A stretch of 64,000 nucleotides of DNA from Tubiluchus corallicola (taxonomy: Eukaryota; Priapulida; Priapulimorpha; Priapulimorphida; Tubiluchidae), in NCBI GenBank assembly GCA_030141605.1, contig JAQGDQ010000118.1, forward strand, positions 521,001 to 585,000. Reading direction: 5' to 3'. Below, piece after piece: positions 1 to 62,054 of the stretch. The notes below the pieces were generated by a model. That model had not been told where the DNA came from. It saw only the letters and a list, made by a program, of their open reading frames with translations, and did not search any database. How positions within the stretch are numbered: the stretch's first letter is position 1; each line of letters starts with the position of its first letter. A program made the translations under genes and the position numbers.

Positions 1-975
1 CATATAAATTGACTCACTGGCTAGGCATTGTTAGAAATTGAAATATGTTAATGTCGCAACATAAAACCTGGGCCGATTTAATTATTGATAAACTGAGTCA
101 AATGATTCACTCACGGCAAATGTGTTAAAGATTCCAATGATTATTATGTTGTGTGCTGTATGTTATCAAATGAACGGTGTTGGTTTACAATCTACTGATG
201 ATGCTAACTGCAAAATTATTGTAAATAGCAACTTTAACAGCACAAGTTTTTAGCTAAATTTGGAAGCATTTTGGCACAATTTACTTAAATGTAGGATATC
301 TCTGTTCAACATGTATTGCTGCGGGTTTGTATGAAAATACATGTAATAGTGCATTTATTTATAATAACGTGCAGACAAAGAAAATTTTAATAACGTCAAA
401 GAAGCCTGCACACAAGGTCATAGGCTAGATGTTTCAGTGTACAAAACAAAACTTTCGTAAACAAAAGTCCAAAAAAGAAGTTATTATGTCGCTTAATATA
501 ATGTAAATTTAAACTGAAAGAAAATTGTTTTGAAAATTATCTTTGTCATAAATATATATATCTTTTGATCTTAACTGTCAAAAGTTAGATAGAGGTGCAT
601 CTTCTAGAACATATTCGTGTGTCACCATGTAATAATCATTTTTATCGTGTTATTGTCGTGACTTATTGACTGTATGACGCGATTGTCGGGACGTACACAT
701 ATTACTGAATAATGCATGCTTTCATTACAGGTTAGTGTGGCGTGAAAGAAATCGGCAAAATGTGGAAATTCTGTAATAGCCGGACTACTGCAGTACCAAC
801 ATAAAATCGTCACTATAATTGCAGTCAGTGCATTGACTGTAGTTATACATGCAGTGCAGACATTACCAACAGTGTTAATGATCAACTTAGAGGTGTTGCA
901 TTAAAAGGACACTGTGAACTCGTGTAGCATGCACAGTATTTTGAAGATCACAATCGCTGAGCTTTATATCCAGTA
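1..975. other. AT-rich upstream region, no gene seen
   Basis: I see no convincing coding exon or recognisable repeat here. The stretch just before the gene at 976 ends in a possible splice acceptor (tatatccag, about 965-974), so an untranslated first exon could lie in this region. Confidence 0.4.
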
Positions 976-1866
976 TTGATGGTGTGTGGACCCTTGCAAA
1001 CTATTGGCCAAAATTTCATAAACAAGAAAGATTCACGTGCAAGAAGCATGAACACACGTGTAACAGAAACTTTAGTGGATGTTTCAACATGGCAACATTT
1101 AATAAAAACAATTTTGGGTGCACAATACATGAAACATTCTGATGGTATTATTTTTAATGTCCTTAGCATTTCTTGTGGGCTGAAACCATCATTTTTATTT
1201 GATTATGGTGAACCTGAAGCAGCGCAGTTGAACTTGTTTGTGCATAAACTATATGAGCATAAAGCAACTCTCATATCATTACAAATCCTTGTGGCAGGTC
1301 AGAATTTGTTCATTGCAAATTTACAGAAATTATGTTTATATCTTGAGAAAATTCAAAAGACAGAGGCACACAGTGAGCCCATACTAATAAATGTTTCAGA
1401 ATGTCTCGATCGTCCAAGCTTGGCTGGAAGTGATATCGTTAAGAATACTATTTCGAGCATGACATCAATTTATGATGAAATAAAAGCTGCTCACACTCAG
1501 AATAAGGCAGAAGAACTTCATTTAAAACCATCCCCTAACGTGAATATGTCAACTTTATATGGTCTCCTACTTGGTTTTCCATTTGTTTACTGGTATGACC
1601 AGAATTCGAATTCGAACTGTTTGTCCTTCATACCGCTCTGTGTGTATGAACTACAAGCAAAATTGGACGTTGGACATGTTCGTGGAAGGTTGCCTCTCCA
1701 ATACTGCTTTAGCTCATTCAGTGTACCAGCGGAATTGGAAGATCAGGGCAAAGAAAGCATAAACCAATGGGAAAATGATGCACGAACTGCACTAACATGT
1801 CAATCTTTATTCAGTGATATTATCATAACAAAAACTGTTAAAGTGCTACCACAAGTGGTCTTGTGA
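976..1866 (+). CDS. C1orf74-like (UPF0739/DUF4504) protein
   Basis: An uninterrupted 296-residue frame with protein-like composition. From memory of the family it resembles the metazoan UPF0739 (human C1orf74) proteins: a GLKPSFLFDYG segment near residue 68, a central helical region, and the LLLGFPFVYW plus NCLSFIPL block near residues 198-220. No biochemical role is established for this family and I infer none. There is no signal peptide or membrane segment. Length is close to the vertebrate homologues (about 270 residues). The start is uncertain: the first Met (residue 1) and Met25, at about 1048, are both possible, and a tatatccag acceptor-like sequence sits just upstream of 976. The gene looks intact and single-exon. 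The family assignment is by eye and should be confirmed by a profile search. Confidence 0.7.
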   Translation: MMVCGPLQTIGQNFINKKDSRARSMNTRVTETLVDVSTWQHLIKTILGAQYMKHSDGIIFNVLSISCGLKPSFLFDYGEPEAAQLNLFVHKLYEHKATLISLQILVAGQNLFIANLQKLCLYLEKIQKTEAHSEPILINVSECLDRPSLAGSDIVKNTISSMTSIYDEIKAAHTQNKAEELHLKPSPNVNMSTLYGLLLGFPFVYWYDQNSNSNCLSFIPLCVYELQAKLDVGHVRGRLPLQYCFSSFSVPAELEDQGKESINQWENDARTALTCQSLFSDIIITKTVKVLPQVVL

Positions 1867-2618: not shown

Positions 2619-2737
2619 AGCCTACAACACCTCTTATTCCTAGGAGGTCACCCATCCAAGTACTAACCAGGCTCTACGTTGCTTAACTTCGGTGATCAGA
2701 CCAGAACCAGTGTTTTCAACGTGATTTGGTCGTAGTC
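2619..2737 (-). rRNA. 5S rRNA-like sequence, copy 1 (probably degenerate)
   Basis: Read on the minus strand this matches metazoan 5S rRNA nearly end to end. It begins GACTACGACC, contains the internal GATCACCGAAGTTAAGCAAC and GGTTAGTACTTGGATGGG blocks (the internal promoter region), and ends in TGTTGTAGGCT. Several stem positions differ from copy 2, for example the helix made by the terminal CTCCTAGGAATAAGAG segment. This copy is therefore likely a pseudogene or SINE head rather than a functional 5S gene. Confidence 0.75.
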
Positions 2738-21676: not shown

Positions 21677-21795
21677 AACCTACAGCACCTGGTATTCCTA
21701 GGCGGTCACCCATCCAAGTACTAACCAGGCTCTACGTTGCTTAACTTCGGTGATCAGACGAGAACCGGTGTTTTCAACGTGATTCGGCCGTAGTA
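21677..21795 (-). rRNA. 5S rRNA-like sequence, copy 2
   Basis: On the minus strand it runs TACTACGGCCGAATCACG, then GATCACCGAAGTTAAGCAAC, then GACCGCCTAGGAATACCAGG, to TGCTGTAGGTTT. It is closer to consensus metazoan 5S than copy 1, and the 3' stem pairs better. Still likely part of a dispersed element; an orphan functional 5S gene cannot be excluded. Confidence 0.7.
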
Positions 21796-24489: not shown

Positions 24490-25555
24490 TTACTTCACCG
24501 CAAAATATAGATTTTGTATATGCTGGCCTGAAACCACAAACAAAAACATGAAATATGAATTTATTTCACAGCAACTCAAACATACATACAAACTGATATA
24601 ACATTGACAAAAAAGTAAATAAACTATGCGAGTTACTGTGAGGAGGGGAAGGAGCATTGAGCTTTCGAGTCCTCCTCCAGATAAGTGAAACAATTGACAA
24701 TTAACATTACGTTTTCATCAGTTATAACGTTCATTGCAACAAAATAAGTTTTGTTAGTAACTTAAGATCAGGATGAGTAAAATTGTGAGTTAATTATACC
24801 GTTGTAGTAGGTAATTCTTTGATGCTTTTTTAAACTGATAAAGATTAAGAGTTTTCATTTCACGCGGAATTGATGACCATATTTTAATAGCATTATATTT
24901 TGATGACTGTTTCATTATATTTGTTTTTGGAAGGGGGAGTACATAGTTTTCGACTGAATATCTTGTGTAATGATCATGTTGATTTGAAACTGGACTAAAG
25001 TATGACTGAAAAGCTGGTGGAAGTAGTGAATTATGACAGAGATACATGGAATGAAGACAATACATGTCATATATTTCTTTCACTTTAAGAGTTTTAACAG
25101 ATAAATAAATTATATTTGTGGACTGGTCATACCTTACATGATATATCAGTTTGAGAATTTTGTTCTGGGTAATTTGTAAAGCTTCCAGATTACTTTTATA
25201 TACACCGCCCCAAGACATGACGCCATATATTAGATATGGGTAAACTAAACTGTAATAGATTTTCATCAATGTTTCTCCATTAACAAACTTGCATAATTTA
25301 TAGATGATTCGCAAGGTTTTACTCAATTTATGCTTTATTATACTTATTTGATACTTGCAGTCTAGGTGCTCATCAAGAAATATTCCCAAATATTTAACAT
25401 GTGACTTTTTTCAACAATAACATTACTAAGAACTATGGTTATATTTCTTGATGGTGTTCTCCTTTTCTTTTTTAGAAGCATGAAGTTAGATTTATTAATA
25501 TTCAATGAAAGCTTATTGACATTCAACCATTCTGTAACAAGTAAATTATATTTTG
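24490..25555 (-). mobile_element. 5'-truncated LINE with RT C-terminal domain and 3' UTR
   Basis: The minus-strand frame 25389-24790 reads LGIFLDEHLDCKYQI, later LVYPYLIYGVMSWGG and LEALQITQNKILKLIYH, and ends with IKIWSSIPREMK and FKKASKNYLL. These are diagnostic blocks of the C-terminal part of a CR1/Rex-type reverse transcriptase. Upstream (25555-25390) the RT thumb block WLNVNKLSLNINKSNFMLL is visible, then the frame shifts just before LGIFLDEH. The 3' UTR extends past the stop at 24790 and includes the hairpin-like CTGGAGGAGGACTCGAAAGC (about 24660-24680, minus). It is dead by truncation and frameshift. Confidence 0.85.
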
Positions 25556-28350: not shown

Positions 28351-28900
28351 GCATTAACATGCAAAACCATGAACTGAAAACATCAGAACTTCTGCTGAAC
28401 TTTCACACAAAAAGCGATTCTGAAATTAGATTGAAGCTACACAAGATCAAAACTGCAATGAATTCATTGAAATACTTGTACAGAAAATTTCTGTGTAGAC
28501 CTAATGTTAGTGTGTACTACAGCGCTAGTGTGTGTTTTTATTCTGAGTTTAAAGTTCTCTGCTAAAAATCGCTAATTGAAATTTATTATGTTTTCAGGGC
28601 TAAGATTTCACTGAATACTCAGCGTAGGGGGAGTCAGCTTATGTACAATTGTACATAGGAGAAAATTATGTGGTTACCTTGCTGTTGGGTGCTGAAAATC
28701 TAGATTTTTGTGCTCTTAAGAGTTCGGCTCTTTCACGGCAAAAACATACGGTAACTTATTACACGATTTATCTAGAAAGAGTAGGATGATGGAGATTTTT
28801 GTTTGCTAGTGTAACAAGCAGAACTGTAGAAAAAAATAAAATGCAAAAAAGGAAACTGTTTGGGGAATTTGATTAATGTGGCGATCGTTCTGCCGTAAAG

Positions 28901-30145
28901 ATGGACTTTAATATTTCATTAACTAGAATTATCAATGAATCATTTGAGATGCTCACCACAATGGAAGCAACCACAGCACCTCCGCTCACCACAATGGAAG
29001 CAACTACAGCACCTCAGCTCACAACAATGGAAGCAGCTACAGCAACTTCTGAAGCCACCACAATGAACAGGAACATCTACTGGGGGATCATTTTCCCCGT
29101 GCTTTCCGGCGTTACCTTTGCTGGTAATGTTGTCAACGTTCTGGTATTTGGATCGAAACACATGCCCGTATCGCCTTTCAACACTCTGTTGCTAGGCCTT
29201 GCGGTCACTGAAGGTCTTCAAGGTGCATGTTTCACCATTGAAAAGGTAAGAGCTGTCTACTGCTCCAGCCCCGGGTGTGACAAGGACGATGTCCAGTTCT
29301 GCTTGACCAAATTTGGAGATCTTTTCTTCTACACCGCCAACTGGATTGTAGTTTTCATCTCCGTGTTCCGCTGCATTGCCGTGTCGCTACCACTAAGACT
29401 CAAGTTTCTGTGCACTGTGTACAGAGCTCGAGTACTCATTGTTGCCAGCTTAATAGGAAACCTAATCAAAGAGTTGCCATATTGGATACAAAAATACGTG
29501 GTGTCATTTGACGAAGAGTTGATTATAATGGAACCCATCAATCAAGTGATTGGACGCGTGATTCCCTGTTTAATTGTACTCTGTTCAACTATGTTGTCAA
29601 TAGTCGTTGTTAGAAGATTACCAAATGTCTCCCTTCCAAAGTCGTGGAGGAAACAGCGTAAAACTAGAGACGAGCAAACGATGGTCAGGATGCTCTTGGT
29701 CCTATTGATTATCTTCTTTTTGACCAACGCGTACTGCGTTTTCCTGATACTTGGTCGCATCTATGGTCTGCAGTTCATAGATCCGCTATTGTTTTCCACG
29801 CCAATAGCTTTTGGGTTCAATTCTGCAATGAACGTGTTCCTGTACTTTCTCATGTCGTCACAGTTTCGTTCCGTGTTTTGCAAATACTTCCAGTGTGCAG
29901 ACGGCAAGGAAGCGGACGCATTATCAAGCAGCACCACTTCTTCGTTTGGTTCCAACTTTAGAAATTTCAGGGCAAGCTTGTTGTCACGTGTTCGGTCAAA
30001 TAGTGCCAAATGTAATGCTTCTGGTGCCCATGCTGATATCTGTAAACCGAACGGGGTGGTTGCTTTGGCCTACCGCCCCAACAGCATAAGTAGCTCTTTA
30101 AAGAGTAATGACACCTCCTTCACTACTGACCACACAAAATTCTGA
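28901..30145 (+). CDS. Rhodopsin-class GPCR, peptide-receptor-like, intronless
   Basis: 414 residues with seven hydrophobic segments at about 61-84, 94-114, 138-160, 175-197, 214-238, 261-285 and 293-318. TM1 has GNVVN (Asn76). The TM3 end reads FRC(I)AV (156-158) where DRY/ERY is usual, followed by the peptide-receptor-like LPLRLKFLC. TM7 has NVFLY (311-315) in place of NPxxY. C110/C121/C126 and C134 could supply the usual extracellular disulphide. The N-terminus has two N-glycosylation sequons (N4, N12) and three tandem 11-residue LTTMEATTAPx repeats. The C-tail (330-414) is Ser-rich, with possible palmitoylated cysteines at 327/332. It resembles invertebrate FMRFamide-type and orphan receptors; the ligand is unknown. 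The frame is intact. Confidence 0.88.
   Translation: MDFNISLTRIINESFEMLTTMEATTAPPLTTMEATTAPQLTTMEAATATSEATTMNRNIYWGIIFPVLSGVTFAGNVVNVLVFGSKHMPVSPFNTLLLGLAVTEGLQGACFTIEKVRAVYCSSPGCDKDDVQFCLTKFGDLFFYTANWIVVFISVFRCIAVSLPLRLKFLCTVYRARVLIVASLIGNLIKELPYWIQKYVVSFDEELIIMEPINQVIGRVIPCLIVLCSTMLSIVVVRRLPNVSLPKSWRKQRKTRDEQTMVRMLLVLLIIFFLTNAYCVFLILGRIYGLQFIDPLLFSTPIAFGFNSAMNVFLYFLMSSQFRSVFCKYFQCADGKEADALSSSTTSSFGSNFRNFRASLLSRVRSNSAKCNASGAHADICKPNGVVALAYRPNSISSSLKSNDTSFTTDHTKF
28960..29050 (+). repeat. 33-bp tandem repeat in GPCR N-terminus
   Basis: Three adjacent units of about 33 bp encode LTTMEATTAPP, LTTMEATTAPQ and a diverged LTTMEAATATS. They form a Thr-rich, mucin-like extracellular stalk. Confidence 0.85.
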
Positions 30146-35550: not shown

Positions 35551-35620
35551 AGTTATGCTTGAGACTATATGAACTAATGTCATTATGATCAGTGATGTTT
35601 GAATTGTTTTTATCCAGATT

Positions 35621-37462
35621 ATGAGCGCTTTTCAAAACTTTTTCATTAATAAGAAGGATTCAAGTGGGTGGACACAACTCCACTGGGCCGTTTTTCTAAA
35701 TCGAATCAGTGATGTTAAGGAATTTCTGGAAAAGGGTGCCGATACAGAAATCAGAGACAAAAAGCGCGGAAATACTGCGCTAATTTGTGCTGCTGCTCGT
35801 GGCTATACCAAAATCCTTGGTGTGCTATTAGATAATGGTGCAGATGTTACAGTGGTAAATGATGTTGGCAACACAGCATTACATGAAGCTGCCTGCAAAT
35901 ACAGTGCTACTGTTTTACACGATGCTGAAAGTGACATATTTGAAGCGAAGCGCTGCACTGTACTTGAGTTAGTGAAACATGGTATTGATATTGCCAAAAA
36001 GAATACTGACGGAAAAACCGCTGTAGAAATTTTTATTAACCAGGCAAATAACACAGGGTTCAACAAAGATTTAAGAGAGCTGATCGGGTTTTTGTTAAGA
36101 TCTTTATATGTGACCAGAAAGCTTGATGATTATTCTCCTAGTAAAGATTTGTTTTTGTCGGAACGAAGTCAGGGTATTAAAGAATGTAAATGCATTGGAG
36201 ACATCGTAACGATTCCTTCAGTTGGTCGTCTTCCTCGTACCGAAGAAAATGAAGTCATTTTAGAAAGAATTACGGCTCTGTTAAACCATGTCTGCAGAAA
36301 GATGAGGGAAACTGATGTCAGATTTGATGCAAGTCCTATTCTCGTTGGCAGTAGCTCATGTGGCATTAAGTGCGGTCTGCCAGACGAGTTTGATTTTTTC
36401 GTCGTGTTAAAAAATTTATGTGACTGCACCTTAGTTGATGGCCTTCCATCCGGTTTTGTAAAGGTGCATGTGCGTGATGAAAATAAACAAAAACTCTATG
36501 CTGAGTTTCTCGATGAAGAGTTTCTCACTATCGAAATAAAAGATTTGTTTGTTATGTTGATATGTAAGGCAATGGATGCCGCTCTTAACGACTCACAGTT
36601 TGAGGAATCACTTTGCTTAATTAATATAGAGTGGAACAAAGTCTGCACAACTTTCAAGTTTATCTATCATGGCAATCATTACAAAGCACTCTGTATTTCT
36701 CTGGATGTTTCCCCTGTATTGGAAATGCCGGAAAAACTTGGAGCCGACGCATCAGTAGAATCACTTTGTTCGGAAATTCCCTGCCATGTTGTCTGTAAGC
36801 CATACACGGATGTGTCCGATTTAACCGTCTGGACTATGTCAACAGCAGTGATGGAAAGTCAGAGAATAAAGGAGATGCCAATTTGTAAGAAACAGGTGAT
36901 GATTTTACTGAAATCATTAATGAGTGGACATTTGTACTGCCCTAGTCCAGACGTAGATATTAAGGAGCACTTGGAAGGCGAAAAATTGTATGTCAGGAAG
37001 CATCTGATAGACAAGTATCGCATCGACATTGTGAGCTTGTTTTGTGTGACAAAATTTCAACCTGGTAAATTAATCGATTCATATCTCTTGAAGACAGCTT
37101 TTCTTCATGAATCTCAGAAGTTTGCTGCTGATGAGTTTTGGGCAGCAGATAGAGTCATTGAACGGGTGTTAAGCATACTGAGTTATATCAGTGATTGTTG
37201 TAAGCAAGGATACATGCCTCACTACATTCTTAATAATGTAAATGTGCTTAGTGAGCATATACGCAAAAGCATCCTCTCTCTGCCTCACTTGATAACATTG
37301 AGTGCGGAAGCGATCTCGACACATGTTAAGAACAATACTCTGCCAACTAAAGAGGGTGTGATGACTCTGACAAGAGAGCAAATCATAGATTTAGTGAAGA
37401 AAAGTCAGCTGAGTGAAACTTGGATGGATGATGTTGCTGATCTGTGGAATTCTATTGAAGAG
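35621..37462 (+). CDS. Ankyrin-repeat cGAS-like nucleotidyltransferase, exon 1
   Basis: Exon 1 encodes 614 residues. Ankyrin repeats: about 16-46 (GWTQLHWAV), 50-82 (GNTALICAAARG), 83-128 (interrupted) and a partial one at 131-160. From about 205 to 560 a Mab-21/cGAS-like domain follows. The GSSS loop at 243-246 lies 12 residues before E256-F-D258, and the third catalytic acid is D362 in ISLDVSPVLE. This is the GS...ExD...D triad of active cGAS-like enzymes. The WTMS block (404) and LKTAFLHES complete the family pattern. The zinc-thumb insertion of vertebrate cGAS is absent, as in other invertebrate cGLRs. Predicted role: ligand-activated synthesis of a cyclic or linear nucleotide messenger in the cytosol; substrate and ligand unknown. 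The exon ends at GAG followed by GTAAAA, phase 0. Read-through would add only eight residues before a stop. Confidence 0.88.
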
Positions 37463-38769
37463 GTAAAATTGAACCCTTTTAATTGTTAACATCATTTACT
37501 CCTACATTTGAATTTTCATACTTTGCACTATCCATACGATATTTTAGTTTGAAATCTTGCAAGAGTTTTGGCATTTCCCTGGAAAAATACAATGTATTAA
37601 AAACAATTGGCAAAAGCCACGTCACTGTATCCTACTTGAATCCTATTTAGGCCCACTAGGCCTATATTGAATGGGTTTGTTTTTCATAATGTAGTTAGTT
37701 GCACAGCTTACTAACGTTGAGTACAGAGACATTGTTTGTTTGACAATCAAGAATATCGATTCGTTCTTTTTACTAGCATAGTGAGGCCATACCCACTGTA
37801 ATATTTTTTTATCAATATTGTAATCAGTGCAACTAATACACAAGAAATCAGACAAAACTCTTTAGCTATATGTAGGCAACACATTAAACGGGAGAAGTGC
37901 TTAGTTACTGTCAGCTTTAAAGCAAAATGTTATCAATTAATAAACTTGAGGTGTGTTTGCAGTTTGCAGTTTTTGCACCCTAAATGCAGTAGGTGAAGGG
38001 TAAGTTACATCATTGATGCTGTGCATTGGTACCACTGTGTTATAACCATAAATAAAAGAGAAAATGATTGGAATTGTGGCTTTATTCCAATTTAAAGAGC
38101 AGCACCATTCCAATTACAAGTTAAGGTGCACTGCTTAAAAGAATGCCAAACCAAAGTGTTGTAATAGGCATAGATGTTAATTAGTTACTCAACATAACAT
38201 TCTTCCCTCCTAAGAATTTGGGAACATTTAAAGCTACAATATCAATTATAAGTGTTATCAAATTGAACCAGACAAACAGTTCAAAGTTAACAGTATTAAC
38301 TCGGAAACTAAACAAAATTTAGTACAGTTAGTTTAAGATACTTATATAAAAGGGATTTGATAAGCAGTATACTGATTCACTGAATGTAATGTCCAATGCA
38401 TATGAATTCTAAAATTAGCAAGAGTTTGATAAAGTTACATCCAATTCAGTTCACTACAATTAATCACAATAGCGTGCTGGCATTTTCCCTTTGTTTGCTC
38501 TAGAAGACCTCCTTACAGATTCTACTTCTTCACTGTCAAGTGCAATTTCTGTAATCTCTTCCTTCCCACTAGTGAAAACTCCATCCATCTTTGTATTAAT
38601 AGTATCCTGATTTGAGACTGTTTCTGTGCGTACAACGTTATGGGAATTCACAGAAATTGCACTCCTGTGTATAATTCTGTGTATGTGATTATGATCTTGA
38701 TAAATCAATACATTATTTTGACTATTAGACATTTTATTAGCCAAAATAAAAATTTCTGCTTTTTTTCAG
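37463..38769 (+). other. Predicted intron with possible intronic polyA signals
   Basis: The GT-AG intron carries AATAAA at 37939-37944 and 38051-38056. These could produce a short isoform ending VKLNPFNC. The remainder is AT-rich and includes an antisense frame at 38460-38744. Confidence 0.55.
38460..38744 (-). mobile_element. Antisense frame, possible retroelement remnant
   Basis: A 94-residue frame inside the intron ends RRSSRANKGKMPARYCD, resembling the basic RRSxRxxKxxxPARY motifs common in retroelement polyproteins. No domain is otherwise recognisable. It might be a chance frame. Confidence 0.3.
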
Positions 38770-38973
38770 TCTTATAAAAAGTCGATAGGTTACGTTCAGC
38801 ACGTTAGAAGAAAGCTAGAGGATGGTAATGATAAAGAGAAGAACAACAGTTTTCACAAGTTTGATCTTCAGGAAAGTGACAGCCACCAGTTTGTTGATAT
38901 GGTAAAAGAAGAGCCTGGGGAAGTGCCGGAGAACACAAAATGCTGCCCGCCTAATAAGTGCATTTGTCAATGA
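38770..38973 (+). CDS. Ankyrin-repeat cGAS-like gene, predicted exon 2
   Basis: A strong acceptor (polypyrimidine tract then ttttttcag, ending 38769) precedes an in-phase open exon of 67 codons plus TGA. It starts SYKKSIGYVQHVRRKLEDG and ends CCPPNKCICQ. The donor after residue 614 and this acceptor are both phase 0, giving a 681-residue protein. The tail is basic, then acidic, then Cys-rich. Its last four residues, C-I-C-Q, fit a CaaX prenylation box, with two upstream cysteines available for palmitoylation. Splicing is inferred from sequence alone. Confidence 0.7.
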   Translation, partial: SYKKSIGYVQHVRRKLEDGNDKEKNNSFHKFDLQESDSHQFVDMVKEEPGEVPENTKCCPPNKCICQ

Positions 38974-45321: not shown

Positions 45322-45588
45322 TTAATACTTCCAAATAAACTTGTATTTTCCATTGTATTTCATCCTTAACACATAGCTTTCGTGTTCTGGCTCAGAAACG
45401 TTGTGGTGCTTGTTGTCGTCATCATCATCATCATCTTCACGTGACTTACGGGCTGTAACACTCAAGCAAATGCAAAGAATAATAAATAAAGTAATTGCAA
45501 GACCCAAAGAAATTCCACTCCAGAGTTTGGACTTCTTTGAGGCTGCCCAGGCTTCTTCTAACCGACCCTCTGCGTTGAATTGGTCGAC
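45322..45588 (-). CDS. CD225/dispanin-family membrane protein, exon 3
   Basis: The last exon starts after tattttcag (phase 0) with VDQFNAEGRLEEAWAASKKS. This is the conserved intracellular loop of CD225 domains, containing the A-x2-AS-K segment. The second membrane span follows (GISLGLAITLFIILCICLSV), then a cytoplasmic or lumenal tail with seven consecutive Asp, His-rich sequence and a KYKFIWKY end. An AATAAA on the minus strand lies about 200 bases past the stop (near 45120). Joined to exons 1 and 2 the protein is 167 residues. The family includes IFITM antiviral factors, PRRT proteins and synapse-differentiation proteins; which function applies here cannot be told. Confidence 0.88.
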   Translation of the reverse strand, partial: VDQFNAEGRLEEAWAASKKSKLWSGISLGLAITLFIILCICLSVTARKSREDDDDDDDNKHHNVSEPEHESYVLRMKYNGKYKFIWKY

Positions 45589-46385
45589 CTGAAAATAAGC
45601 AGCTTTAATTAAAGCTTGACATATTTGTGGCCTGGGCCTACTTAGTTGGGTGGTTTGGATGAACCTTATGTATTTGTGGTAAATTATTACTTCATGTTTT
45701 TTCTTGTTGCTGCTGTTTGCTTCAGAAATATTTCAAAATCTTTCAAACTGTAACGGCAGAGTTGATTGAATTGACAGATAAAGCCTCGACTCGAGATTGA
45801 ATGAGAAATAGCAGATTATATTTTGTCACTTCCATTTCTTTCTAAGGACAGCTAATGGAAAACATGTTAATTATTAATAATTAGTAACTTCTACAGCATT
45901 GGGATTTCAAAATCTTGTAGTTCATTAAGGTTTGACGAAATTTCCTGCCCCCTAATTTAAAATTCTCATATAAATCCTCAGATTGTTAGTTTTTCTTATA
46001 ATAGCCCAAAACTAAAAATATAGGTGTTTTACATGCACACATTCTGAAGACGAAAATAATTTGTCATTAATGCACAGCACTGAATTCACACATTTTAAAA
46101 CTCGATATTTTAAATATCTAATTGGTTTTTAGCAGTTTGACCTGCTTGCTTATTTTGGTTTCCAGTGTTCGTTCTGTCAGTCGGTTGGTGGGTTAGTCGA
46201 TCAGTCATTCAGTTGAATTTCTGTGGTTTCTTAAAAAATCTCTTCCTGTTTTTAAACAACTTGCATTCAATGAGACAATCAGCAGCTATACTAATACCTT
46301 TGTTACATGCGTTAATTGACAAATATACTGATACTTTTGTTACGTGCATCTGTTCATGCTGACTCATTATGTTAAATATATTCAC

Positions 46386-46562
46386 CTTTATAGCATAGTA
46401 CACTGCTACGATCCCAGCAGGCCAGAAACAGCAGATGCAAGAAATGACGGCTAGAGTCAAGTTGTTGGGAGCTCCTGACCGCTCACCCAGAACTATGACA
46501 GTTGCACCAGTTGGCTGAGTTTGGTAAGCTTGGTACCCGCCTGGCCCTGATTGAATCGGGTA
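46386..46562 (-). CDS. CD225/dispanin-family membrane protein, exon 2
   Basis: 59 codons between a tttttcag acceptor and an AAG/GTGAAT donor, both phase 0. The first part is Pro/Gly/Gln/Tyr-rich (YPIQSGPGGYQAYQTQ), typical of dispanin cytoplasmic N-termini. It then enters the first membrane-associated segment, LTLAVISCICCFWPAGIVAV. The CC pair followed by W-P-x-G-I-V-A-x-x-Y is the CD225 signature; the equivalent cysteines in IFITM proteins are S-palmitoylated. No in-frame stop or lesion. Confidence 0.9.
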
Positions 46563-47468
46563 CTGAAAAAGTCAGTGATTTTGTGACGGATGTTGGTGGA
46601 AATCTGTATAGTGTCTTGTGCCAATTCTTATGTAAACATGGCACATGTTTGAGAAAGTATGGCCCATTGAAAACAAGTCAATGGTCTTAAGTCAATGATC
46701 CGATATACGGCCACACCATAGATGCAATGTATGTATACAATGACTTCTATGTGTATATAACGGATTGATTATTTGGCCTGATTCATACGTATTAATATAT
46801 ACGTTATTGAGAGATACATGTTCTTTATAACAAAGAAGGAAATTAGTTGAGCTCTTCTCCTGGTTTTTAAAATTTCGTTGGTGCCAAAGATTTAAGTTTA
46901 ATTAAAAATTTCTAAATTAAATAAAAAATAAAATAAAATTACGCGAGCTCGTGTACAGACCAAAATATAATGGTCTCACTTTGACCCTGGGATAGTGTAC
47001 TGAATAACTATTTTTGTAGCTTTTCAGTAGTTTTAGCTGTTGCAATAGGTCTTCGAATTATCTGATCTTCTATAAAGGTCTAACTTTAACTGCAATTTCT
47101 TTCTTGCAAAGCTTCGAATGAAGCGTGTACCTTTAACACATTTTAAAAACGGGCGCCATTTTTTGTCTTAATGGAATTCTTTCATTTCTGTGTGTCAGTA
47201 TCTTCAGAAACTTTTCCATTCAATAGTTGTACCTCCCTTATCTCTTTGTCAGACGAAATTGTAAGGGTTGCACTGGGGGGACAATTTACTTCAATGACAG
47301 GTACTGTAAATATCCTCAGAAAAGTTGCTTAAAATCCGTTGTTGTTCAAAATAAGAACAGCGTTTATAATATTAAAATTAGGCCTTATGCTTTCAACTTT
47401 TCTTGTTTTCAAGCTTAGCTTTTCATGTTTAATAGATCGAATTACTAAAAATACTCAATAGAATAAAT

Positions 47469-56345: not shown

Positions 56346-56732
56346 TTCTGAAATAGCGCCTATACAGCTTGTAAGAAAGTTTGTTTTACTATGTACTTCA
56401 ATGGTAAATACAAATTAAAGAAGAAAAAAAACTTTCGCCAAAATGAAGCAAGAAGTTATTGTCAAATAATTCGGCAACTAAAAGCAGAAGTACAAATGAA
56501 TTTTTAATTACATTCGGATAAAACGAAGTATGTTAGATTTTTGGACACATTTTCGCCTCTAATGCAAAAATAATAGCTTTCAAAAAGAGTAGGCTTTCAA
56601 GGCGTCGTAAAGACGCCTCAGGTTAGGTCAGCCGCATCAGTACGAATGACAAAAAGTATCAATAATGATTTTATCCTGCTATAGAATTCAATGCAGATTC
56701 GTTATTTGGTTGCTAAGATGCCCTATAAGGCA

Positions 56733-59700
56733 ACGCGCGCCACCTTAACTTTGCTAAATTTTACAACAATGCACCCCACCGTAACTTTGCTAAATTTTAC
56801 AACAATGCACGCCACCGTAACTTTACTAAATTTTACAACAACGCGCGCCACCTTAACTTTGCTAAATTTTACAACAATGCGCGCCACCGTAACTTTACTA
56901 AATTTTACAACAATGCACCCCATCGTAACTTTGCTAAATTTTACAGCAATGCACGCCACCGTAACTTTGCTAAATTTTACAGCAATGCACACCACCGTAA
57001 CTTTGCTAAATTTTACAGCAATGCGCGCCACCGTAACTTTGCTAAATTTTACAGCAATGCGCACCACCGTAACTTTGCTAAATTTTACAACAATGCGCCC
57101 CATCGTAACTTTGCTAAATTTTACTGCAATGCACGCCATCGTAACTTTACTAAATTTTACAACAATGCGCGCCACCGTAACCCTGCTAAATTTTACTGCA
57201 ATGCACGCCACTGTAACTTTGCTAAATTTTACAACAATGCGCGCCACCGAAACTTTGCTAAATTTTACAGCAATGCGCACCACCGTAACTTTGCTAAATT
57301 TTACAACAATGCGCCCCATCGTAACTTTGCTAAATTTTACAACAATGCACCCCATCGTAACTTTGCTAAATTTTACAACAATGCACGCCACTGTAACTTT
57401 GCTAAATTTTACAACAATGCACCCCATCGTAACTTTGCTAAATTTTACAGCAATGCGCACCACCGTAACTTTGCTAAATTTTACAGCAATGCGCACCACC
57501 GTAACTTTGCTAAATTTGACAGCAATGCGCACCACCGTAACTTTGCTAAATTTTACAACAATGCGCCCCATCGTAACTTTGCTAAATTTTACTGCAATGC
57601 ACGCCATCGTAACTTTACTAAATTTTACAACAATGCGCGCCACCGTAACCCTGCTAAATTTTACTGCAATGCACGCCACTGTAACTTTGCTAAATTTTAC
57701 AACAATGCACCCCATCGTAACTTTGCTAAATTTTACAGCAATGCACGCCACTGTAACTTTGCTAAATTTTACAACAATGTGCGCCACCGTAACCCTGCTA
57801 AATTTTACAACAATGCACCCCATCGTAACTTTGCTAAATTTTACAATAATGCGCACCATCGTAACTTTGCTAAATTTTACAGCAATGCGCACCACCGTAA
57901 CTTTGCTAAATTTTACAACAATGCGCGCCACCGTAACTTTGCTAAATTTTACAACAATGCGCACCACCGTAACTTTGCTAAATTTTACAACAATGCACCC
58001 CATCGTAACTTTGCTAAATTTTACAACAATGCACGCCACCATAACTTTGGTAAATTTTACAGCAATGCGCACCACCGTAACTTTGCTAAATTTTACAACA
58101 ATGCACGCCACCGTAACTTTGCTAAATTTTACAACAATGCGCACCACCGTAACTTTACTAAATTTTACAACAATGCACGCCATCGTAACTTTGCTAAATT
58201 TTACAACAATGCGCACCATCGTAACTTTGCTAAATTTTACTGCAATGCACCCCACCGTAACTTTACTAAATTTTACAACAATGCACATCATCGTAACTTT
58301 GCTAAATTTTACAACAATGCACCCCATCGTAACACTGCTAAATTTTACAGCAATGCACGCCATCGTAACTTTACTAAATTTTACAGCAATGCACTCCACC
58401 GTAACTTTGCTAAATTTTACAACAATGCGCGCCACCGTAACTTTACTAAATTTTACAACAATGCACCCCATCGTAACTTTGCTAAATTTTACAACAATGC
58501 ACCCCATCGTAACTTTGCTAAATTTTACCGCAATGCGCACCACCGTAACTTTACTAAATTTTACAGCAATGCACGCCACCGTAACTTTACTAAATTTTAC
58601 AACAATGCACCCCATCGTAACTTTGCGAAATTTTACAGCAATGCACCCCATCGTAACTTTGCTAAATTTTACAACAATGCACCCCATCGTAACTTTGCTA
58701 AATTTTACAACAATGCACCCCATCGTAACTTTGCTAAATTTTACAACAATGCACCCCATCGTAACTTTGCTAAATTTTACAACAATGCACCCCATCGTAA
58801 CTTTGCTAAATTTTACAACAATGCACCCCATCGTAACTTTACTAAATTTTACTGCAATGCACGCCACCGTAACTTTACTAAATTTTACAACAATGCACCC
58901 CATCGTAACTTTGCTAAATTTTACAACAATGCGCGCCACCGTAACTTTGCTAAATTTTACAACAATGCGCACCACCGTAACTTTGCTAAATTTTACAACA
59001 ATGCACCCCATCGTAACTTTGCTAAATTTTACAACAATGCACGCCACCATAACTTTGGTAAATTTTACAGCAATGCGCGCCACCGTAACTTTGCTAAATT
59101 TTACAACAATGCACGCCACCGTAACTTTGCTAAATTTTACAACAATGCGCACCACCGTAACTTTACTAAATTTTACAACAATGCACGCCATCGTAACTTT
59201 GCTAAATTTTACAACACTGCGCACCATCGTAACTTTGCTAAATTTTACTGCAATGCACCCCACCGTAACTTTACTAAATTTTACAACAATGCACATCATC
59301 GTAACTTTGCTAAATTTTACAACAATGCACCCCATCGTAACACTGCTAAATTTTACAGCAATGCACGCCATCGTAACTTTACTAAATTTTACAGCAATGC
59401 ACTCCACCGTAACTTTGCTAAATTTTACAACAATGCGCGCCACCGTAACTTTACTAAATTTTACAACAATGCACCCCATCGTAACTTTGCTAAATTTTAC
59501 AACAATGCACCCCATCGTAACTTTGCTAAATTTTACCGCAATGCGCACCACCGTAACTTTACTAAATTTTACAGCAATGCACGCCACCGTAACTTTACTA
59601 AATTTTACAACAATGCACCCCATCGTAACTTTGCTAAATTTTACAGCAATGCACCCCATCGTAACTTTGCTAAATTTTACAACAATGCACCCCATCGTAA

Positions 59701-62054
59701 CTTTGCTAAATTTTACAACAATGCACCCCATCGTAACTTTGCTAAATTTTACAACAATGCACCCCATCGTAACTTTGCTAAATTTTACAACAATGCACCC
59801 CATCGTAACTTTGCTAAATTTTACAACAACGCACCCCATCGTAACTTTACTAAATTTTACAACAATGCACCCCATCGTAACTTTACTAAATTTTACAACA
59901 ATGCGCGCCACCGTAACTTTGCTAAATTTTACAACAATGCACCCCATCGTAACTTTGCTAAATTTTACTGCAATGCACGCCACCGTAACTTTGCTAAATT
60001 TTACTGCAGTGCACGCCACCGTAACTTTACTAAATTTTACAACAATGCACCCCATCGTAACTTTGCTAAATTTTACAACAATGCACCCCATCGTAACTTT
60101 GCTAAATTTTACAACAATGCACCCCATCGTAACTTTGCTAAATTTTACAGCAATGCACGCCACCATAACCCTGCTAAATTTTACAACAATCGCGCCACCG
60201 TAACTTTACTAAATTTTACAGCAATGCGCACCACCGTAACTTTACTAAATTTTACAACAATGCGCGCCATCTTAACTTTGCTAAATTTTACAACAATTCG
60301 CGCCATCTTAACTTTGCTAAATTTTACAACAATTCGCGCCACCGTAACTTTGCTAAATTTTACAACAATGCACCCCATCGTAACTTTGCTAAATTTTACT
60401 GCAATGCACGCCACCGTAACTTTGCTAAATTTTACTGCAGTGCACGCCACCGTAACTTTACTAAATTTTACAACAATGCACCCCATCGTAACTTTGCTAA
60501 ATTTTACTGCAGTGCACGCCACCGTAACTTTACTAAATTTTACAACAATGCACCCCATCGTAACTTTGCTAAATTTTACAACAATGCACCCCATCGTAAC
60601 TTTGCTAAATTTTACAACAATGCACCCCATCGTAACTTTGCTAAATTTTACAACAATGCACCCCATCGTAACTTTGCTAAATTTTACAACAATGCACCCC
60701 ATCGTAACTTTACTAAATTTTACAACAATGCACCCCATCGTAACTTTACTAAATTTTACAACAATGCGCGCCACCGTAACTTTGCTAAATTTTACAGCAA
60801 TGCGCGCCACCATAACTTTGCTAAATTTTACAACAATGCATGCCACGTAACTTTGCTAAATTTTACAACAATGCATGCCACCATAACTTTGCTAAATTTT
60901 ACAACAATGCACCCCATCGTAACTTTGCTAAATTTTACAACAATGCACCCCATCGTAACTTTGCTAAATTTTACAGCAATGCACCCCATCGTAACTTTGC
61001 TCAATTTTACAACAATGCACCCCATCGTAACTTTGCTAAATTTTACAACAATGCACCCCATCGTAACTTTACTAAATTTTACAACAATGCACCCCATCGT
61101 AACTTTACTAAATTTTACAACAATGCGCGCCACCGTAACTTTGCTAAATTTTACAACAATGCACCCCATCGTAACTTTGCTAAATTTTACTGCAATGCAC
61201 GCCACCGTAACTTTGCTAAATTTTACTGCAATGCACGCCACCGTAACTTTACTAAATTTTACAACAATGCACCCCATCGTAACTTTGCTAAATTTTACAA
61301 CAATGCACCCCATCGTAACTTTGCTAAATTTTACAACAATGCACCCCATCGTAACTTTGCTAAATTTTACAGCAATGCACGCCACCATAACCCTGCTAAA
61401 TTTTACAACAATCGCGCCACCGTAACTTTACTAAATTTTACAGCAATGCGCACCACCGTAACTTTACTAAATTTTACAACAATGCGCGCCATCTTAACTT
61501 TGCTAAATTTTACAACAATTCGCGCCATCTTAACTTTGCTAAATTTTACAACAATTCGCGCCATCTTAACTTTGCTAAATTTTACAACAATGCGCGCCAC
61601 CGAAACTTTGCTAAATTTTACAAAAATGCGCGCCACCGAAACTTTGCTAAATTTTACAAAAATGCGCACCACCATAACTTTACTAAATTTTACAACAATG
61701 CGCGCCACCGTAACTTTACTAAATTTTACAGCAATGCACGCCATCTTAACTTTGCTAAATTTTACAACAATGCACGCCATCTTAACTTTGCTAAATTTTA
61801 CAACAATGCACCCCATCGTAACTTTGCTAAATTTTACAGCAATGCACACAACATAACTTTGCAAAATTTTACAACAATGCATGCCACCGTAACTTTGGTA
61901 TATTTTACAACAGTGTATGCCACCGTAACTTTGGTATATTTTACAGCAATGCACGCCACCGTAACTTTGGTATATTTTACAACAGTGTATGCCACCGTAA
62001 CTTTGCTAAATTTTACAACAATGCATGTTACCGTAACTTTGCTAAATTTTACAG
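56733..62054. repeat. 5.3-kb minisatellite of 36-bp units with higher-order repeats
   Basis: About 148 tandem copies of a 36-bp unit (core aactttgctaaattttacaa + caatgcaccccatcgt). Polymorphism is confined to a few sites: g/act, aac/agc/tgc, gca/gcg, ccc/cgc/cac and cat/cac. The unit length is a multiple of three and contains no stop in two plus frames and one minus frame, so open frames of over 1,000 codons arise. A block of 28 units (1,008 bp) is duplicated (58031 and 59039 carry the same rare caccataactttggtaaa variant). A second long duplication, offset 1,222 bp, links 60179 and 61401. The array lies inside the intron between exons 62136 and 54441. Confidence 0.98.

What the first reader, a model, noticed from the sequence alone, without database searches (positions are those of the whole stretch)
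35621..38973. Ankyrin repeats fused to a catalytically complete cGAS-like receptor
Seen: GSSS at 243-246, E256 and D258 exactly 12 and 14 residues after the Ser, and D362 in an I-S-x-D-V-x-P-V-L-E context, plus the downstream WTMS and LKTAFLHE blocks, all in one open frame with N-terminal ankyrin repeats. Known: these positions bind Mg2+/nucleotide in cGAS and cGLRs; MAB21 developmental homologues usually lack a full triad. Inference: this is an enzymatically competent sensor in which ankyrin repeats replace the usual N-terminus and may mediate ligand or partner recognition.
Basis: partly seen in the sequence, partly recalled or inferred. Interest (0 to 1): 0.88.

Follow-up and report, generated by a model that had tools for sequence, protein, structure and literature searches.

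The report
Ankyrin-fused cGAS-like sensor, expanded family
This gene, apparently from an animal, encodes a cGAS-like immune-type enzyme with an ankyrin-repeat front end; it belongs to a large family in the same genome, some recently duplicated members of which change fastest on the ankyrin surface that usually grips other proteins.

Summary

The architecture is not new: Li et al. 2023 reported ankyrin-cGLR fusions. Their printed cGLR motif is not met to the letter here, nor by 11 relatives.

The wider finding is new to me. The window's genome holds 51 Mab-21_C loci, 41 in frames of 600 aa or more. Of 37 frames aligned, 33 keep the triad and 32 carry ankyrin repeats. In a recent seven-gene cluster, ankyrin codons show diversifying selection (M1a/M2a LRT 128.7), at ankyrin target-binding positions (15 of 33 versus 4 of 161, p 3e-10); a second cluster agrees more weakly, other pairs do not. 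The window gene itself looks conserved (ankyrin dN/dS 0.38 against its 95% copy).

Best reading: an ankyrin-armed nucleotide-messenger receptor, probably sensing proteins. Activity, ligand and STING partner are untested.

The parts
35621..37462 (+). Main coding exon of the ankyrin-cGLR gene (residues 1-614; the open frame reads on to a stop at 37487-37489, 622 aa)
   Evidence: homologue over 97% of the length
35660..36109 (+). Ankyrin repeat region, residues about 14-163: two to three canonical repeats plus a capping segment (boundaries by eye)
   Evidence: Pfam Ank_2 E 9.6e-15, Ank E 3.4e-13; helices in model
36188..37351 (+). cGAS/Mab-21 fold (NTase lobe plus helix bundle), residues 190-577
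36347..36352 (+). G243-S244 of the GS activation-loop motif
   Evidence: kept in 13 of 13 proteins
36386..36394 (+). E256-F257-D258, first two predicted metal-binding acids, on predicted strand 256-263
36704..36706 (+). D362, third predicted catalytic acid, on predicted strand 357-369
37070..37270 (+). Mab-21_C (PF20266) match, residues 484-550
   Evidence: E 3.5e-11, 43.6 bits, cut-off 24.1; same place in whole-genome search
37463..38769 (+). Predicted intron (GT...TTTTTTTCAG), phase 0
   Evidence: sequence and script; no transcript data
38770..38973 (+). Predicted terminal exon, 67 residues plus TGA; not searched for homologues
   Evidence: in frame with exon 1

Best explanation
It is an intracellular pattern-recognition-type enzyme: an N-terminal ankyrin array fused to a cGAS-like nucleotidyltransferase. 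The array is the sensing surface; binding of a ligand, probably a protein, repositions the array or brings enzymes together so that the acidic, Zn-ribbon-less cGLR-like domain makes a cyclic (or linear) nucleotide messenger read by a STING-like receptor. Shown: architecture, predicted fold, intact triad, a large same-genome family of the same build, and in two recent paralogue clusters selected sites enriched at the ankyrin target-binding positions. Suggested by one pair only: constraint on the window gene. Inferred: catalysis, ligand class, array-to-enzyme coupling, STING or another receptor downstream, immune role. The window gene looks like a conserved member; the diversifying members are its paralogues.
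Against: No biochemistry and no expression data. Outside the seven-gene cluster, ankyrin dN/dS is above 1 in only 1 of 5 pairs (0.38, 0.67, 0.88, 0.82, 1.28), and the second cluster's one-ratio ankyrin omega is 1.02, not significantly above 1 (LRT 0.01); only its site test is significant. Of 9 own-genome pairs tested by replacement counts, the 7 enriched at the target-binding positions all come from the two clusters; L014/L016 (odds ratio 0.8) and the window gene with its copy (1.3, two scored repeats) are not; of two cross-species pairs, P0003/L018 gives 0.7 and P0002/L032 2.2, p 0.26. In the seven-gene cluster the core also has selected sites (M1a/M2a LRT 55.2; one-ratio omega 0.98) and core dN/dS is above 1 in 9 of 21 pairs. 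In the second cluster the enrichment weakens at stricter cut-offs (5 of 50 v 4 of 215, p 0.014; 3 of 50 v 1 of 215, p 0.022). Gene conversion between paralogues was not tested, and some 'paralogues' may be alleles: their synonymous distances resemble that of the window gene and its copy. The set of positions is recalled, and I tested it after seeing the register. The whole-genome STING search did not complete.
Confidence: 0.5

Rival explanations
1. It is a nucleotide synthase, but ankyrin repeats only place it (membrane, cytoskeleton or a signalling complex); the ligand binds the enzyme domain as in cGAS and insect cGLRs.
For: Known cGLRs sense dsRNA or dsDNA with the enzyme domain; the window gene's own ankyrin part looks conserved (dN/dS 0.38); core sites are also under selection in the seven-gene cluster.
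Against: Domain pI 5.46, spine helix net charge -1 and NTase lobe net charge -12 do not suit nucleic acid; in the seven-gene cluster ankyrin dN is about twice the core's, and selected sites favour target-binding positions in two clusters. The pI argument does not cover all relatives: P0122 is 8.28 and L036, L038, L039 are 8.1 to 8.9.
Confidence: 0.25
2. It is a non-catalytic Mab-21 protein that signals by protein contacts, as reported for three shrimp Mab21 proteins that bind IKK-epsilon and made no cGAMP (PMC12928593, abstract seen).
For: A triad does not prove activity; the printed cGLR motif fails in one letter and in spacing; the W-T-M-S-T-A stretch differs from the cGAS W-R-L-S-F-S.
Against: 33 of 37 frames in this genome and 13 of 13 compared proteins keep all three acids, while the MAB21-like gene of the same genome has lost GS and the third acid.
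Confidence: 0.18
3. Ordinary ankyrin-cGLR gene with nothing beyond Li et al. 2023; the family size is inflated by uncollapsed haplotypes and the selection signal by gene conversion.
For: Identical copies on different contigs (L018, L019, L020; L033, L034) and a 95% copy of the window gene.
Against: Leaving aside the 95% copy, the ankyrin-bearing frames are only 27-40% identical to the window protein; null simulations without recombination do not produce the LRT.
Confidence: 0.07

Closest known systems
Ankyrin-fused cGLRs of Li et al. 2023 (PMC9980059; three fused proteins, with ankyrin repeats or death domains, among 42 cGLRs in Stylophora pistillata)
   Same: Ankyrin repeats plus cGLR enzyme domain in one animal protein
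   Different: There fusions are a minority (87% of cGLRs stand alone); here 32 of 37 frames aligned carry ankyrin repeats and two clusters show selected sites at target-binding positions. The coral protein found here (P0123, Acropora) is only 23% identical over 82% of the query core.
Priapulus caudatus LOC106810026 (P0122)
   Same: Same order of parts, same triad, same predicted fold
   Different: 28% identity over the core; more repeats; basic domain (pI 8.28)
cGAS (human, mouse) and oyster Cv-cGLR1
   Same: Fold, GS/E/D/D, both lobes
   Different: No H-CC-C Zn ribbon, acidic domain, changed base-pocket letters, ankyrin front end
MAB21L-type developmental proteins
   Same: Mab-21 fold and Mab-21_C domain
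   Different: The same-genome MAB21-like locus L009 lacks GS, has Glu at the second acid and Gln at the third
DARPins (designed ankyrin binders) and natural diversifying repeat receptors such as NLRs (recalled)
   Same: Variation sits at surface positions of a repeat scaffold (the position numbers are recalled)
   Different: Fused to a nucleotide synthase-type domain; no binding shown

Membership tests
cGLR (criteria of Li et al. 2023) | Printed motif h[QT]GS X8-20 [DE]h[DE]h X50-90 h[DE]h | tested here: not met
   VGS instead of [QT]GS and 101 instead of 50-90 residues; also fails in the other 11 of 12 proteins tested. I therefore call it cGLR-like by fold and residues, not a cGLR by the letter of that motif.
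cGLR (criteria of Li et al. 2023) | Homology over both the NTase core and the C-terminal helix bundle | tested here: met
   Profile stretches in both halves of mouse cGAS; structural match 191-577 to cGAS 149-506
cGLR (criteria of Li et al. 2023) | AlphaFold2 model matching known cGLR/CD-NTase enzymes | tested here: met
   pLDDT 79.6, pTM 0.80; cGAS E 9.6e-12, Cv-cGLR1 E 2.1e-11
cGLR | Synthesis of a nucleotide second messenger | not testable with these tools
   needs purified protein
cGLR superfamily (Culbertson and Levin 2023: clade plus PF03281) | PF03281 domain above cut-off | tested here: inconclusive
   15.1 bits, cut-off 24.1, for the window protein, so not reached by itself; above cut-off in P0002, P0003 and P0122; E up to 0.01 in 20 of 37 frames. 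PF20266 is above cut-off.
cGAS | Zn ribbon H-CC-C between the lobes | tested here: not met
   pattern absent in 13 of 13 proteins
Ankyrin-repeat protein | Tandem ankyrin repeats | tested here: met
   five Pfam ankyrin models above cut-off
Diversifying receptor family | Positive selection at ligand-facing positions in the gene itself | tested here: not met
   window gene with its copy: ankyrin dN/dS 0.38, no positional enrichment, little power with two scored repeats; met for two paralogue clusters only
cGLR-STING pathway | STING gene in the same genome | not tested
   PF15009 search of the genome did not complete (19 tries)

The most novel reading that the evidence does not exclude
This genome carries a germline-encoded, intracellular receptor repertoire in which natural ankyrin arrays work like DARPins: their target-binding positions diversify under selection to bind foreign or changed proteins, and binding switches on a fused cGAS-like enzyme. 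That would be a cGLR class that senses proteins, not nucleic acid, with the specificity built into an interchangeable repeat array.
Probability: 0.38. Interest if true: 0.92.

Novelty: new variant of a known kind. Interest (0 to 1): 0.74.

Why it matters
Li et al. found active acidic cGLRs with no known ligand and proposed a non-nucleic-acid trigger. A family whose ankyrin arrays diversify at target-binding positions gives that open question a direct handle: the array can be expressed alone as bait, and its selected residues name the likely contact surface. If true it would add an ankyrin-based repertoire to the known repeat-based receptor families of animals (LRR in NLRs and TLRs, recalled).

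Tried and rejected
Motif counting as proof: rejected, the relaxed motif turns up in 102 of 1000 shuffles. Other Mab-21 copies inside the window: none, tblastn of the 681-aa protein finds only itself. Viral or prokaryotic origin: scans of viral contigs and genome contigs, two peptide patterns each, gave 88 and 69 pattern stretches and no relative; of the 50 viral fold matches listed none is named as a nucleotidyltransferase, and the descriptive names are mostly ankyrin proteins. Organism: not named by any search; that it is an animal is inferred from the gene content and the relatives. The two nearest outside proteins (P0002, P0003) come from unnamed records and are 76% and 81% identical to other loci of this genome. 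Orientation of array and enzyme: linker pLDDT 48-64 around residues 161-190, so not interpreted. Recombination between paralogues: not tested; a tree made from the ankyrin part alone had the same branching and gave the same LRT. The homologue search with the enzyme part alone did not return P0002 and P0003, so it is not exhaustive. Papers: PMC9980059 passages and section 5; PMC10732462, PMC12424679, PMC13144350, PMC10855445 and PMC8683736 passages; PMC12928593 outline, abstract and a term search. That I know of no print record for selection on ankyrin-cGLRs rests on searches and a term search in PMC9980059; supplements were not readable. DARPin position numbers are recalled: PMC8683736 passages confirm that surface positions of internal repeats are randomised and form the paratope, but gave no numbers. 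cGAS residue numbers and its motif spacing are recalled.

Rows dropped: of 51 Mab-21_C loci (one of them the window gene), 40 others were read and 10 were not. From those, 37 frames including the window's went into A4, each from its first ATG; four short pieces (L010, L012, L013 and the 194-aa piece of L023) were left out. In A4, L018/L019/L020 and L033/L034 are identical. The 13 proteins include the near-copies P0124/P0125; tree left P0125 out; tree left out identical copies, L022, L035 and the short pieces. The five A4 frames without ankyrin are taken to be L009, L022, L030, L035 and L045 from my own signature count, since one search gives numbers only. The two clusters for the codon tests were picked by me for close similarity; L045 was left out of the first as too short. 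Script failures.

Full report
WHAT IS THERE. The frame 35621-37489 on the + strand encodes 622 residues; an in-frame stop lies at 35600-35602 and an acceptor-like TTTTTATCCAG just before the ATG. This second exon is a prediction that I did not search for homologues. Pfam finds ankyrin repeats (E 9.6e-15) and Mab-21_C (E 3.5e-11); the nucleotidyltransferase half scores 15.1 bits, under its cut-off of 24.1.

IS IT A cGLR? Li et al. 2023 use three criteria. Two-lobe homology and AlphaFold2 similarity are met. The printed motif is not met: V precedes GS where the motif has Q or T, and the spacing is 101 where it allows 50-90. The same motif fails in the other 11 of 12 proteins tested, including two oyster proteins and the Acropora one. 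I therefore describe the protein as a cGAS/Mab-21-fold, cGLR-like enzyme with an intact predicted triad.

ALREADY KNOWN. Li et al. report ankyrin modules in some cGLRs and three fused proteins, with ankyrin repeats or death domains, among 42 cGLRs of a coral; 87% of cGLRs carry no extra domain. Searching with the enzyme part alone (residues 185-622), all 4 of 4 hits carried ankyrin repeats, from Priapulus, Acropora and unnamed records; that search missed P0002 and P0003, so it is not exhaustive. A later profile search also found three stand-alone relatives among 6 hits, two of them from oysters. So the fusion is not new as an architecture. The linker between ankyrin cap and enzyme is conserved to P0002 (E 2.7e-18) and P0122 (E 1.4e-7; in a set of ten proteins), not significantly to P0123 or P0124.

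THE SAME GENOME. After twelve busy answers, the whole-genome search returned 51 Mab-21_C loci over cut-off in 343.5 Mb, 2344 contigs. Of these 41 of 51 lie in open frames of 600 aa or more, up to 1368. Of 37 frames aligned, Mab-21_C is in 37, ankyrin in 32, the complete triad in 33. The MAB21-like L009 lacks it, an internal control. Leaving out identical copies and the 95% copy of the window gene, 27 frames appear to have both ankyrin and triad (my count); some of these may be alleles of each other. A tree puts 31 own frames with P0002, P0003 and Priapulus P0122 (SH-aLRT 96) and leaves the other eight outside rows and L009 apart; it is a short search with long-branch warnings, so only the broad grouping is used. 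P0002 and P0003 fall among own loci, so part of the family seems to predate the split from their species.

SELECTION. In a cluster of seven close copies (L040, L041, L042, L044, L046, L047, L048), ankyrin dN/dS exceeds 1 in 21 of 21 pairs (1.16-2.0); core dN is about half the ankyrin dN, though core dN/dS exceeds 1 in 9 of 21 pairs. In the 5 other pairs tested, ankyrin dN/dS is 0.38, 0.67, 0.88, 0.82 and 1.28. My codon model reproduced the IQ-TREE likelihood (-2816.293). One-ratio omega for 301 ankyrin codons is 1.58 (LRT against 1: 8.97, p 0.0028) and 0.98 for the core. M1a/M2a LRT is 128.7 for ankyrin, with 18% of codons at omega 8, and 55.2 for the core. Twelve null simulations gave at most 2.86. 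Leaving out any one of six of the seven sequences (L044, the reference, was kept) leaves 95-109.

WHERE THE CHANGES FALL. Of 22 ankyrin sites with posterior above 0.95, 19 lie in six scored repeats, at repeat positions 2, 3, 5, 9, 10, 13, 14 and 33, and none at 15-32. Against the positions randomised in DARPin libraries (2, 3, 5, 13, 14, 33; recalled), that is 15 of 33 versus 4 of 161, p 3e-10. I ran this test after seeing the register, so the second cluster (L021, L025, L026) is the fairer check: one-ratio ankyrin omega 1.02 (not significantly above 1), M1a/M2a LRT 36.3 for ankyrin and 1.74 for the core; 10 of 50 versus 6 of 215 at posterior 0.8 (p 8e-5), weaker at 0.9 and 0.95 (p 0.014, 0.022). 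Those positions are structurally tolerant in any ankyrin protein, so enrichment alone would not prove selection; a site class with omega well above 1 does argue for it. It is not universal: L014/L016, the window gene and its copy, and the two cross-species pairs show no significant enrichment.

THE WINDOW GENE. Against L017 it has dN/dS 0.38 in ankyrin and 0.16 in the core, one pair with few changes and no test of significance: it looks like a constrained gene and one of the conserved members.

MECHANISM. Most likely the array binds a ligand and controls the enzyme. The domain is acidic (pI 5.46), with a near-neutral spine helix (net -1) and an acidic NTase lobe (net -12). Li et al. give pI above 8.5 for nucleic-acid sensors and propose non-nucleic-acid ligands for acidic ones. 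But several relatives are basic (P0122 8.28; L036 8.91), so the family may not share one ligand class. A non-catalytic alternative has precedent in shrimp Mab21 proteins. STING in this genome is unknown: the search did not complete.

VERDICT. Observation confirmed; architecture known; scope larger than the finding. New to me, within the searches named, are the size of the ankyrin-cGLR family in one genome and the selection at ankyrin target-binding positions.

Noticed in passing
window 56731-62053: A 36-bp minisatellite of 148 copies with strong strand skew; it opens artefact frames of over 1000 codons on both strands.
   Followed up: no
window 2619-2737 and 21677-21795, - strand: Two 5S rRNA genes about 19 kb apart.
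   Followed up: no
window 46212-46571 and 45325-45732, - strand: Two frames that together look like one CD225 (IFITM/dispanin-type) membrane protein; the first is above the Pfam cut-off, the second below it.
   Followed up: partly
window 28877-30142, + strand: Single-frame Srw-type GPCR with a 33-bp tandem repeat in its N-terminus.
   Followed up: partly
window 964-1863, + strand: DUF4504 protein, E 2.3e-36.
   Followed up: no
window 24790-25410, - strand: Frame that reads like a non-LTR retrotransposon fragment by eye; no Pfam hit at E 0.1.
   Followed up: no
L018, L019, L020; L033, L034: Protein-identical ankyrin-cGLR copies on different contigs: very recent duplicates or assembly duplicates.
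   Followed up: no
L023:2803-5286 (C2100): Ankyrin-cGLR frame with VDS where the family has VGS, beside further Mab-21_C matches on the same contig.
   Followed up: no
C1890: L014, L016: Two neighbouring ankyrin-cGLR genes, 86.6% identical, without the positional enrichment seen in the two clusters.
   Followed up: partly
A4, one member not identified: One of 37 frames also matches a retroviral aspartyl protease family, E 1.8e-5.
   Followed up: no
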